A stretch of 64,000 nt of DNA from Bradyrhizobiaceae bacterium. GTDB lineage: Bacteria > Pseudomonadota > Alphaproteobacteria > Rhizobiales > Xanthobacteraceae. Below are positions 40,220-45,798 of the stretch, one piece after another (within the stretch, counting starts at the first letter, position 1; the number at the start of each line of letters is the position of its first letter). Below the pieces are notes generated by a model, which was not told the DNA's origin, searched no databases, and saw nothing but the letters and a program-made list of their open reading frames with translations. Where the stretch lies: NCBI GenBank assembly GCA_003963145.1, contig RXJJ01000013.1:1-64000 (forward strand). The letters are read 5' to 3'. Both the position numbers and the translations under genes were made by a program.

Positions 40220-42412
<2,193 letters not shown>

Positions 42413-42543
42413 TCAGATTTGTCGGAGTGTTCCTAGGCGATTTCTGTGACGTTCGGTCGCGAATGCGGCCTCGCGCAGGTTTTCGGCCCGGTACGCCGGA
42501 TATTCCGGCCCGCCTTCGGCGCGGACGATAGGAGGGGTTGTCC

Positions 42544-42590
42544 ATCAGGTCTAATCGTATTAATAATCGTTCTAGATAAGAAATTCTGAT
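42544..42590. promoter_or_regulatory. candidate OxyR-binding region
   Basis: An AT-rich segment between katG and oxyR with imperfect dyad symmetry: ATCAG (42544-42548) and CTGAT (42586-42590) at the ends, with AATCGTATTAATAATCGTT and TCTAGA inside. LysR-type regulators bind such extended dyads close to their own start. No exact ATAG-N7-CTAT array was seen. Confidence 0.35.
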
Positions 42591-42593
42591 CGA

Positions 42594-43505
42594 ATGGTTT
42601 CGCTCAAACAGCTCAAATATTTCGACGCGGTGGCGCGCGCCGGGCATTTCGGCGCGGCCGCCGAGCAATGCGCGATCAGCCAGCCTGCGCTGTCGATGCA
42701 AATTCAGGAACTTGAGAAATCGCTCGGCGTCCAGCTTCTCGAGCGGAGCCGTCGCGGGGTGATGCTGACAGAAAGCGGCCGTGCCATCGCCCAGCGTGCG
42801 GCGCGGGTGCTGGCCGATGTGCGTGATATTGCCGATGTGGCGCGGCGGCAAAACGAAGTGCTGACCGGGCCGCTGCATTTCGGCGTAATCCCCTCGGTCG
42901 CGCCTTATATCCTGCCCCAGCTTCTGCCGATGATGCGCGACGGATTCCCGGGTCTCGACCTGCATATCCGTGAAACGCAGACCCAGTTTCTGACCCGTGA
43001 ACTGCTTCATGGCCAGCTCGATCTGCTGTTGCTGGCCATGCCGGTCGAACATCCCGAGATCGAAACGCTGGCGTTGTTCGACGACAGGTTTCTGCTGGCG
43101 ATGGCCTCATCGCACCGCATTTCCGGGCTTGCGCGCGCGACTGCAGATCTCCTCGACAGCGACCGTCTCCTGCTGTTGGAAGAGGGACATTGTTTCCGCG
43201 ATCAGGCGCTGGCGTTCTGCAGTCTGCAGAAGGTCGAGAACATCAACACGTTCGGCGCGTCGAGTCTGTCGACGCTGGTGCAGATGGTCGCCAACGGTCT
43301 TGGCCTGACTCTGCTGCCGGAACTCTGCGCGCCGCTTGAGACGCGGCGCAGCGATATCCGTCTGATGCGGTTTGCAGATCCGCAGCCGAAGCGTACCATC
43401 GGCCTGGCTTGGCGCAGGACGTCGCCGCGTAAGGACAGGTTTGCGGAACTTGGTGCGATGATTACCGCAGCGGCAACGCCGCGCGAAACGGCTGCGGTGG
43501 CGTGA
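42594..43505 (+). CDS. oxyR: hydrogen peroxide-sensing LysR regulator OxyR
   Basis: A 303-residue LysR-type activator. The N-terminal helix-turn-helix is typical (LKYFDAVARAGHFGAAAEQC and ALSMQIQELEKSLGVQLLER). The redox pair is visible as GHCFRDQALAFC, corresponding to Cys199 and Cys208 of the E. coli protein, which distinguishes it from other LysR proteins. It is divergent from katG with a 202-base spacer. On oxidation it should activate katG; this follows from knowledge of the family. Confidence 0.94.
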   Translation: MVSLKQLKYFDAVARAGHFGAAAEQCAISQPALSMQIQELEKSLGVQLLERSRRGVMLTESGRAIAQRAARVLADVRDIADVARRQNEVLTGPLHFGVIPSVAPYILPQLLPMMRDGFPGLDLHIRETQTQFLTRELLHGQLDLLLLAMPVEHPEIETLALFDDRFLLAMASSHRISGLARATADLLDSDRLLLLEEGHCFRDQALAFCSLQKVENINTFGASSLSTLVQMVANGLGLTLLPELCAPLETRRSDIRLMRFADPQPKRTIGLAWRRTSPRKDRFAELGAMITAAATPRETAAVA

Positions 43506-43539
43506 GAAGCCGCAACTCGCAAAACCTCCGGCGCAGTTT

Positions 43540-43638
43540 CTAGACCGCGCCTACCATGGCCACGCCGAGGATGGCCAGAACGGCAAGAACGACCGCCGTG
43601 AGAAGGTTGTAGAAATCGTTTTGCTTCAAGGCCCGCAT
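43540..43638 (-). CDS. 32-residue single-helix membrane microprotein
   Basis: A very short gene: ATG at 43638-43636, stop TAG at 43542-43540. The peptide begins MRALKQNDFYNLLT and continues as one hydrophobic helix of about 20 residues (VVLAVLAILGVAMVGAV at the end). It has a near-ideal SD, GGGAG seven bases before the ATG, and an exact sigma-EcfG promoter whose -10 lies 45 bases upstream of the start. Together these make a real gene likely. It should be a small inner-membrane protein with the basic N-terminus inside. Function unknown. Confidence 0.75.
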   Translation of the reverse strand: MRALKQNDFYNLLTAVVLAVLAILGVAMVGAV

Positions 43639-43682
43639 TCGATGACTCCCGCATGTGGACATGGATGGAACATCACGAAGGC

Positions 43683-43707
43683 AACGCCGCGCACAAGCGC
43701 GCGTTCC
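43683..43707 (-). promoter_or_regulatory. exact sigma-EcfG-type promoter
   Basis: On the minus strand GGAAC (43707-43703), N16, CGTT (43686-43683), a full match to the general-stress consensus. It drives leftward into the 32-residue microprotein gene and implies a leader of roughly 38 bases. Confidence 0.68.
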
Positions 43708-43845
43708 CGGAACGCTAGCACAGCCGCCGGACGCCGGGGAGGGCGGAATAGGAAACAGGCTTCAAATTCCACAACACCCGGCCATCCCCTATGGTCCGCG
43801 CCAACCGCCGCCCTGAGCGCGGATTCGATATTGGAGGGATACGAG

Positions 43846-44025
43846 GTGATTGTCGCTGCGCTTTATCGCGATGAGAATGATTGCGCCCTGGTGTGCTTTG
43901 GGACCACGACCGTGATGGTCCCGCGCTGGCGTTATGAGCACAACAAGTACTACAAGGTGCCGTTCGGCGAATTGCCGACCCGGGCCGAGTATGAGCGCCG
44001 CAATGCGCCGGGCGTGGCGGCGTAG
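43846..44025 (+). CDS. 59-residue hypothetical protein, GTG start
   Basis: A short protein, (M)IVAALYRDENDCALVCFG with TTTVMVPRWRYEHNKYYKVP and then FGELPTRAEYERRN, apparently a compact soluble domain with beta-strand character. The GTG at 43846 is chosen because TTGGAGGG lies about 9 bases upstream. The frame is open back to 43621 but that part overlaps the opposite-strand microprotein and its promoter, and looks non-coding. No family recognised. It lies 73 bases before tRNA-Arg. Confidence 0.55.
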   Translation: MIVAALYRDENDCALVCFGTTTVMVPRWRYEHNKYYKVPFGELPTRAEYERRNAPGVAA

Positions 44026-44098
44026 CTTCGATTTGCCGGCGTGATCGTGCCGCCTTTTTGTTTGATCGCGGCCTGAAATCGGCTATTCCAGCGCTGAC

Positions 44099-44175
44099 GC
44101 GCTCCTAGCTCAGCTGGATAGAGCATCGGATTTCGATTCCGAGGGTCGGGAGTTCGAATCTCTCGGAGCGCGCCA
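44099..44175 (+). tRNA. tRNA-Arg, anticodon TCG
   Basis: A 77-base cloverleaf: acceptor GCGCTCC (44099-44105) pairs with GGAGCGC (44165-44171), D arm GCTC/GAGC, anticodon stem TCGGA/TCCGA with loop TTTCGAT giving anticodon TCG, T arm GGGAG-TTCGAAT-CTCTC, discriminator G and encoded CCA (44173-44175). It reads the CGA codon. No integrase or duplicated 3' end is nearby. Confidence 0.95.
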
Positions 44176-44235
44176 TTGTCTTCGCCACCCGTACTGGAAC
44201 TGGGAAAACGGCGGCCAGCGCAGCTGGCGCTGCGT

Positions 44236-45798
44236 TCACAGCGGATCGCCGAGAAAAAATGTCCGCATGGTGCCCGAGCCCTTGATGTGGGTCGGGCCGC
44301 GTTCTTCCAGCGCGAATGTTCCGCCAAGCGCCGTAGCAACGCTTTCGCTGAGATGCACCTTGCCCGGCAGGCCATGCGATTCCATCCGGCTGGCGATGTT
44401 CACGGTGTTGCCCCAGACATCGAACGCGAATTTCCGCTGGCCGATGACGCCGGCAATGGCCGGACCGGTGTGAAGGCCAAGGCGCAGACCGATCGGCTCG
44501 CCGTCATGGCCGCGGAACGAGCGGGCTGATTTCAGCATCGCATGCGCGAGGGTTGCGGCGGCATGCGCGTGATCCGGCCTCGGATCGGGCAGGCCGAAGG
44601 CGACCATATAGGCATCGCCGATGGTCTTGATCTTCTCGCCGCCGGTTTGCTGCGTGAGCCTGTCGAACTCCGAGAAAATCGCGTTCAGGAAACGGACCAG
44701 CTCGACCGCCGACTGTCGGCCCGCCATCGGCGTGAAGCCGACGATATCGGCGAACAGGATCGTTACCGCGTCGACATGATCCGCGATCATCTCTTCGCCG
44801 GCATTGATGCGGTCGACGACCGCGCGCGGCAGAATTGAGAGCAGGAGATCCTCGTTGCGGGCCTTCTCCCGCTGGATGTCCATCAGCATGTCCTTCTCGC
44901 GGTCGCGCAGGAACTTGTTTTCGAGGCTCGCACCGATGCGGGCGTAAAGCAGGGTTGTATTGACCGGCTTTGAGAGAAAATCGACCGCGCCCGCTTCGAT
45001 GCAGCGGATCGTGCTGTCGATCTCGTCGAGCGCGGACATGATGATGACGGGAATGTCCCGCGTGCGCGGATCGCTCTTGAGCCGATGCAGGACATCGTAA
45101 CCGCCGATCTGCGGCATGATGAGATCGAGTAGAATGAGATCGAATGCTTCCCCCGCGACCATGGCGAGCGCGGTCTCGCCGCCATCGGCCTCGACCGGCG
45201 TATGTCCGACATGGACGAGTTGCCGGCTCAGAAGATCGCGATTCGAAGGATTGTCGTCGACAATGAGGATCCGGCCCTTGATGGTCGAATGCGCCGCGCC
45301 GGCAGCGATGGAGCGGATCGAGCGCGCCGCTTCGATGGCGCTCGCCGGCATCTGACTATCGGGATGCGCCTGAAAATCGACCAGCGCGTCGATTTTCTTC
45401 AGCACGCCGTCCGCGGCGTCCAGCAGCTTGCCGAGATCGGCGAGAAGGGCGGCGTGGCCGTCACTCTCCGCGTCTTCCGCCAGCATCTCGCCGTAACCCT
45501 TGATCGCGTTGATCGGCGTGCGCAGATCGTGACGCAGTTCGGCCTGGTGAAGAACGGCGTCCTCGCTGCCAGGATCGCGTTCGAGCACGGCGCGCAGGGT
45601 CGACAGCAATGCGCGCCCGGCCGCGCCGATGCGTTCGAGATCGGGGAGGTAGCCTTCCAGCGATTTGTCGCGCGCTTCCTCGAGCAAAATCTCCGAATAG
45701 CCGGCAATCGACATCGCCGGCGCCATGAATTCCTGGCGCAGGTGTGCCAGCAGCGCCCGATGGACGCGTTGCTCGTCGTCATCGGGAGCCGCGGCCAT
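44236..45798 (-). CDS. HisKA-like/receiver/class III nucleotide cyclase protein
   Basis: A 520-residue signalling protein. Residues 10-140 contain a HisKA-like dimerisation helix with His90 in RHDLRTPINAIKGYGEML, but no ATP-binding kinase domain follows. Residues 176-290 are a receiver with Asp225 in LILLDLIMPQ and Lys277. A linker helix leads to a class III adenylate/guanylate cyclase domain (345-515), with metal Asp351 in FADIVGFT and Asp395 in KTIGDAYM. The product is presumably cAMP or cGMP, controlled by phosphorylation. It is the last gene of a three-gene operon, 7 bases after the CheY-like gene. Confidence 0.88.
   Translation of the reverse strand: MAAAPDDDEQRVHRALLAHLRQEFMAPAMSIAGYSEILLEEARDKSLEGYLPDLERIGAAGRALLSTLRAVLERDPGSEDAVLHQAELRHDLRTPINAIKGYGEMLAEDAESDGHAALLADLGKLLDAADGVLKKIDALVDFQAHPDSQMPASAIEAARSIRSIAAGAAHSTIKGRILIVDDNPSNRDLLSRQLVHVGHTPVEADGGETALAMVAGEAFDLILLDLIMPQIGGYDVLHRLKSDPRTRDIPVIIMSALDEIDSTIRCIEAGAVDFLSKPVNTTLLYARIGASLENKFLRDREKDMLMDIQREKARNEDLLLSILPRAVVDRINAGEEMIADHVDAVTILFADIVGFTPMAGRQSAVELVRFLNAIFSEFDRLTQQTGGEKIKTIGDAYMVAFGLPDPRPDHAHAAATLAHAMLKSARSFRGHDGEPIGLRLGLHTGPAIAGVIGQRKFAFDVWGNTVNIASRMESHGLPGKVHLSESVATALGGTFALEERGPTHIKGSGTMRTFFLGDPL

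What the first reader, a model, noticed from the sequence alone, without database searches (positions are those of the whole stretch)
43540..43707. Unannotated 32-residue membrane microprotein with an exact general-stress promoter
On the minus strand an ATG (43638) opens a 32-codon frame for a basic N-terminus plus one hydrophobic helix. GGGAG lies 7 bases before the ATG, and GGAAC-N16-CGTT matches the sigma-EcfG consensus exactly with the -10 only 45 bases upstream. The three signals together are unlikely by chance. The gene falls below usual annotation length cut-offs.
Basis: partly seen in the sequence, partly recalled or inferred. Interest (0 to 1): 0.72.

Follow-up and report, generated by a model that had tools for sequence, protein, structure and literature searches.

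The report
Stress-controlled 32-residue membrane microprotein gene
A tiny gene for a 32-residue one-helix membrane protein sits behind a general-stress-response promoter, and two divergent copies in related bacteria, at unrelated places, keep the same size, start signals and promoter, so it is very probably a real gene whose job is still unknown.

Summary
Observation confirmed. ATG 43638 (-) opens a 32-codon frame (basic N-terminus, one hydrophobic helix). GGGAG lies 7 nt before it, and GGAAC-N16-CGTT (43707-43683) ends 44 nt upstream. The promoter string alone is weak: 71 exact matches in the genome, against 97 for the backwards control. The combination is not: 0 of 303 sites in 250 simulated windows had such an ORF. 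The genome carries phyR-nepR-ecfG, and 15 of 30 inspected sites precede a ribosome-site-led ORF, against 2/30 and 3/60 in controls.

Decisive evidence: a protein-only search of the 29 held genomes of the genus led to two divergent homologues (G006, 47%; G003, 31%). Both are 32 codons, with GGAG 6 nt before the start and the only GGAAC-N15..17-CGTT of their ~20 kb 26-29 nt upstream. None of 5 other hits and none of 15 weak short-frame hits has such a site.

The homologues lie at unrelated loci. The gene is absent downstream of all 25 oxyR-like genes compared. Profile searches of family, order and class samples found no further convincing member. It looks like a real, rare, GSR-driven membrane microprotein; expression was not measured, and its target is inferred.

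The parts
43703..43707 (-). -35 element GGAAC of the sigma-EcfG promoter
   Evidence: sequence; pattern scans; same element before both homologues
43683..43686 (-). -10 element CGTT, N16 from the -35
   Evidence: sequence; same consensus as reported for Sphingopyxis and R. etli EcfG (passages read)
43646..43650 (-). ribosome binding site GGGAG, 7 nt before the ATG
   Evidence: sequence; GGAG 6 nt before the start in both homologues
43540..43638 (-). 32-codon gene (stop included) for a single-helix membrane microprotein
   Evidence: homologues L008 and L009
43506..44098 (.). 593-bp interval between the oxyR-like gene and tRNA-Arg, which is 66-111 bp in 9 relatives; holds the microprotein gene and a 59-aa ORF

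Best explanation
It is a real protein-coding gene of the alphaproteobacterial general stress response. Stress frees sigma-EcfG from NepR through PhyR; sigma-EcfG transcribes a short mRNA from GGAAC-N16-CGTT; translation from GGGAG-ATG gives a 32-residue protein. It inserts as one helix, N-terminus inside by its positive charges, and most probably packs against a larger membrane protein (a transporter, respiratory complex or sensor kinase) through its conserved small-residue face ([AG]22-x2-G25-x4-G30-A31) to adjust that partner during stress. Supported by sequence evidence: gene, start, promoter, conservation of the unit, presence of the GSR system. Inferred: actual transcription and translation, membrane insertion and topology, partner binding.
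For: A protein-only search led to two homologues, both of 32 codons with GGAG-6-start and both with the only GGAAC-N15..17-CGTT of their ~20 kb placed 26-29 nt upstream of the start. 0 of 5 other hits of that search (200 nt upstream scanned) and 0 of 15 weak short-frame hits from the family search (300 nt scanned) have such a site. In-frame similarity was not reached in 5000 substitution simulations for any of the three pairs, and 9/14, 6/9 and 5/10 identical residues use different codons. Composition-preserving shuffles reached the observed similarity 0, 3 and 5 times in 100000. The PhyR-NepR-EcfG locus is present. 15 of 30 inspected sites in the genome are followed within 18-66 nt by a ribosome-site-led ATG ORF of at least 25 aa, against 2/30 and 3/60 controls; 0 of 303 sites in simulated windows have such a TM ORF.
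Against: No expression data exist here. The exact site is not enriched over the reversed pattern genome-wide (71 v 97). Only 3 of 29 genomes of the genus have the gene, at three different loci, and it is missing downstream of 25 oxyR-like genes of relatives. G003's spacing is N15, one short of the usual 16, and its similarity alone is weak (E 0.6). G006 starts with GTG. The similarity tests use pairs that were selected by similarity. The partner-binding step rests on analogy. No solved-structure match, and the fold job had not finished at 12 collection attempts, so the helix rests on hydropathy alone.
Confidence: 0.62

Rival explanations
1. A self-limiting, toxin-like membrane peptide of the type I toxin kind: made under stress, it inserts into the inner membrane and lowers its potential, slowing growth.
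For: Size, basic N-terminus and single hydrophobic helix fit; the predicted mRNA is somewhat more structured than shuffles (z -1.96, 9 of 200 shuffles as stable); patchy distribution at unrelated loci.
Against: No sigma-70-like antisense promoter in 43350-43850 (a poor test in Alphaproteobacteria); no second copy found in its own genome; a dedicated stress promoter and ribosome site are not what marks type I toxins (recalled).
Confidence: 0.17
2. The EcfG promoter makes a small regulatory RNA, possibly acting on the 3' end of the convergent oxyR-like mRNA, and the ORF is incidental.
For: The microgene is convergent with the oxyR-like gene and no intrinsic terminator was found between them, so a read-through transcript would be antisense to it.
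Against: What is conserved in the two homologues is the protein, start and length, while flanks and neighbours differ; in-frame similarity beats simulations; no Rfam family above its cut-off apart from the tRNA in 42000-45000.
Confidence: 0.1
3. Chance: a TM-like ORF, a ribosome site and a promoter-like string happen to be lined up.
For: The promoter string occurs about once per 54 kb in this genome and is no commoner than its reversed control.
Against: 0 of 303 simulated sites; the same arrangement in both homologues, which were found without using the promoter.
Confidence: 0.04

Closest known systems
Sigma-EcfG (RpoE2/SigT) general stress regulon of Alphaproteobacteria
   Same: GGAAC-N16-CGTT promoter (motif in PMC7083833 and PMC3892343, passages read) and a PhyR-NepR-EcfG locus in the genome
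   Different: The passages read name no 32-aa single-helix protein (regulon tables were not read); regulation is inferred from sequence only
Stress-linked single-helix small proteins that modulate a membrane partner (AcrZ; also MgtS, CydX, KdpF, recalled)
   Same: Tens of residues, one TM helix, no other domain (recalled); AcrZ binds the membrane part of AcrB (start of the abstract of PMC7267776 in the listing)
   Different: No sequence match to any Pfam or NCBIfam family; partner unknown; different class and sigma factor
Small DUF1127 proteins of Agrobacterium (under 50 aa, bind sensor kinase PhoR)
   Same: Alphaproteobacterial proteins under 50 aa acting by protein-protein contact (abstract of PMC12501420 read)
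   Different: No DUF1127 match in Pfam
Ribo-seq small proteins of Sinorhizobium meliloti (SEP6, SEP16)
   Same: Previously unannotated small proteins with a predicted TM helix, detected mainly in the P100 fraction (passages of PMC10117765)
   Different: Not compared by sequence here; 'RpoE2' occurs 0 times in that main text

Membership tests
Sigma-EcfG (general stress response) regulon | GGAAC-N16/17-CGTT promoter at a fitting distance from the start | tested here: met
   -10 ends 44 nt before the ATG, within the 20-62 nt seen for the 15 of 30 inspected sites that have such an ORF
Sigma-EcfG (general stress response) regulon | Organism encodes PhyR, NepR and EcfG | tested here: met
   PF18557 NepR, PF22029/PF22233 PhyR, Sigma70_r2/r4_2 protein directly after nepR
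Sigma-EcfG (general stress response) regulon | Promoter conserved before homologues | tested here: met
   2 of 2 other members: N16 in G006; N15, one nt short, in G003
Sigma-EcfG (general stress response) regulon | Transcription lost in an ecfG or phyR mutant | not testable with these tools
   needs a mutant and RNA
Single-helix membrane-protein modulators (AcrZ-like in action) | Under about 50 aa with one TM helix and no other domain | tested here: met
   32 aa; best mean hydropathy 2.91 over 17 residues; no domain found; the fold prediction did not finish
Single-helix membrane-protein modulators (AcrZ-like in action) | Sequence relationship to a known family | tested here: not met
   Pfam and NCBIfam: none up to E 10 for the three peptides; PDB profile search: one match, E 1.1, a 22-residue Thp5 peptide
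Single-helix membrane-protein modulators (AcrZ-like in action) | Binds a larger membrane protein | not testable with these tools
   pull-down needed; no shared neighbour that would suggest a partner
Type I toxin-like membrane peptides | Antisense RNA regulator overlapping the gene | tested here: inconclusive
   sigma-70 consensus scan finds none, but that scan is weak for Alphaproteobacteria

The most novel reading that the evidence does not exclude
The unit of about 170 bp (EcfG promoter, ribosome site, 32-codon frame) is a portable stress cassette: it turns up at unrelated chromosomal sites in different species of one genus, with no alignable flanks, and diverges fast in sequence while keeping length and control. 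It would be one visible member of a larger, fast-turnover layer of membrane microproteins that each species adds to its general stress response.
Probability: 0.22. Interest if true: 0.68.

Novelty: new member of a known kind. Interest (0 to 1): 0.42.

Why it matters
Genes this short are easily missed by annotation, so what the general stress response does at the membrane may be underestimated. The three copies give an orphan protein family with an identifiable promoter, which makes it directly testable by reporter fusion, ribosome profiling and pull-down. The way it was confirmed, by protein similarity first and promoter afterwards, could be applied to other stress regulons.

Tried and rejected
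Conservation at the same locus: rejected. In 25 oxyR-like loci of relatives (17 at 75-80% identity, 8 at 48-53%) none has both an EcfG-type site and a small TM ORF within 1.5 kb downstream; two have a loose site without such an ORF (L053, L069) and four have a small TM ORF without a site (L060, L066, L067, L068), none like the peptide. ARAGORN on the 17 closer ones found tRNA-Arg(tcg) in 9, at 66-111 bp from the oxyR stop; in the other 8 no tRNA was found in the locus held.

Promoter enrichment by count alone: rejected as evidence (71 v 97); positional enrichment was used instead (only 30 of the 71 sites were inspected, the first 30 listed, for which loci were given).

More members: family 391, order 397, class 385 and G006-centred 298 genomes (overlapping samples; the first three are draws from larger groups). 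Besides the three members, the best matches were E 0.00106, 0.00203 and 0.0129, each partial and in a frame of over 200 aa. The printed list was cut; all 15 printed matches in frames under 100 aa, apart from the members, were taken. The genome-contig scan confirmed 1 of 578 candidate stretches, G006's own contig. Viral contigs: 155 candidate stretches, none confirmed. tblastn: window peptide in plasmids and phages, G003 peptide in phages only, G006 peptide in plasmids only: no match; low-complexity filtering may hide TM peptides there.

Link to the 59-aa ORF next door: rejected. Its weak relatives in G177 and G206 have no EcfG-type site in their 3-kb loci; each locus has one unrelated-looking TM ORF.

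Rfam: the xerDC match at 43412-43540 is far below its cut-off (27.2 v 72.5) and taken as chance. PHROG: the G003 peptide alone gives phrog_8707, unknown function, E 0.0034; phage tblastn with it gave nothing, not followed further. In one search the G006 peptide was given as a 28-aa piece by a coordinate slip; the alignment also lacks the last codons of G006. The start-codon guess for L008 was off and was corrected.

Literature: searches, seen as listings with abstract starts (passages or abstract of four of the papers), showed no description of such a protein; the library holds open-licence PMC papers only, so this is not proof of absence from print.

Full report
What is there. On the minus strand the window reads GGAAC (43707-43703), 16 nt, CGTT (43686-43683), then 44 nt with GGGAG (43650-43646), then ATG 43638 and 32 codons to a stop ending at 43540. 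The product is MRALKQNDFYNLLTAVVLAVLAILGVAMVGAV. An in-frame ATG lies 24 nt upstream (40 aa), and a 150-aa frame overlaps in another phase, antisense to the end of the oxyR-like gene. The start at 43638 is preferred because of the ribosome site and because the homologues have their ribosome-site-led start at the same position.

Is it more than chance? The promoter string alone is not rare: 3 in the window against 1.16 expected, and 71 in the genome against 97 for the pattern read backwards. But it is used: of the first 30 of the 71 sites, 15 are followed at 18-66 nt by an ATG ORF of at least 25 aa with a ribosome site, against 2 of 30 looking backwards and 3 of 60 at offset places. The genes behind these sites include a DUF883 protein and a 53-aa hydrophobic protein. 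In 250 Markov windows with 303 sites, 3 had a ribosome-site-led ORF of 25-45 aa and none had a TM segment. The genome encodes PhyR, NepR and an EcfG-type sigma factor in one locus.

Homologues. A protein-only search of all 29 held genomes of the genus gave, after the window itself, G006 (E 3e-4, 47% over 30 residues) and G003 (E 0.6, 31%), and five other weak hits. G006 (L008): GGAAC-N16-CGTT, 26 nt, GTG, 32 codons, GGAG 6 nt before the start. G003 (L009): GGAAC-N15-CGTT, 29 nt, ATG, 32 codons, AAGGAG 6 nt before it. None of the five other hits has such a site within 200 nt upstream. Nor has any of 15 weak hits of the family search in frames under 100 aa, within 300 nt. In the ~20 kb around each homologue the pattern GGAAC-N15..17-CGTT occurs once, and that is the copy before the ORF. 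The E-value of G003 alone would not establish homology; the promoter, start and length do.

Coding signature. In-frame BLOSUM scores of the three pairs (75, 52, 51) were not reached in 5000 simulations each; identical residues with different codons are 9/14, 6/9 and 5/10; third positions differ most (17, 19, 20 differences). Shuffling residues within the N-terminal and helix blocks reached the observed score 0, 3 and 5 times in 100000. Because the homologues were found by protein similarity, these tests are biased in favour; the promoter and start evidence is independent of that. Residues shared by all three, besides the start: L18, L24, G25, V29, G30, A31, with a small residue at 22, an acidic residue at 8 and an aromatic one at 10 (read by eye).

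Where it sits. In nine relatives the oxyR-like gene is 66-111 bp from tRNA-Arg(tcg); in the window the interval is 593 bp and holds the microprotein gene and a divergent 59-aa ORF. None of 25 oxyR-like loci of relatives has the gene within 1.5 kb downstream. The two homologues lie elsewhere: near a transglycosylase-associated (PF04226) protein gene in G006, and beside phage-tail-type genes (DUF2460, Phage_BR0599) in G003. The upstream flanks show no convincing alignment. Either the gene relocates with its promoter, or most lineages lost it or diverged beyond recognition; these cannot be separated here. G003 and G006 are 83 and 85% complete drafts, and for so short a gene failed detection in other genomes is possible.

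How it probably works. Stress activates PhyR, which takes up NepR, and sigma-EcfG transcribes the gene (general knowledge; the motif is in PMC7083833 and PMC3892343, passages). The peptide should insert with its basic end inside and act on a membrane partner, as AcrZ does on AcrB (abstract start in the listing, PMC7267776); under-50-aa alphaproteobacterial proteins are reported to act on a sensor kinase (abstract, PMC12501420). The partner step is inference. The toxin-like and sRNA rivals are kept at lower weight. The structure job never finished (last polled).

Known or new. No Pfam or NCBIfam family, no convincing PHROG or PDB relative, and no match in the phage and plasmid searches made or in viral contigs. 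It is a new orphan family of a known kind: small stress-controlled membrane proteins. The genus is unnamed here; the public contig matching G006 is titled 'MAG: Xanthobacteraceae bacterium'.

Noticed in passing
window 43846-44025 (+): A 59-aa ORF (GTG start after GGAGGG) divergent from the microprotein gene, in the same interval missing from nine relatives; of 391 family genomes only two others, in other genera, gave weak relatives (G177, G206).
   Followed up: partly
window 43701-43715: The -35 element lies in a 15-bp palindrome, GCGTTCC-G-GGAACGC. G003 has a shorter one at the same element (CGGAA-C-TTCCG), G006 has none. It could be a separate regulator site.
   Followed up: partly
L104 2577-2738 (-): A 53-aa hydrophobic ORF 62 nt behind an exact EcfG site (N17) close to phyR-nepR-ecfG in the same genome: another candidate stress-controlled small membrane protein.
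   Followed up: partly
L009 1659-2093 (-): In G003 the microprotein gene faces a 144-aa ORF that looks by eye like the start of a phage-tail-type gene cut short (not tested); DUF2460 and Phage_BR0599 genes lie further along.
   Followed up: no
window 44236-45798 (-): A protein joining a HisKA-like part, a receiver domain and an adenylate/guanylate cyclase domain, next to ORFs that look by eye like a response regulator and a hybrid histidine kinase.
   Followed up: no
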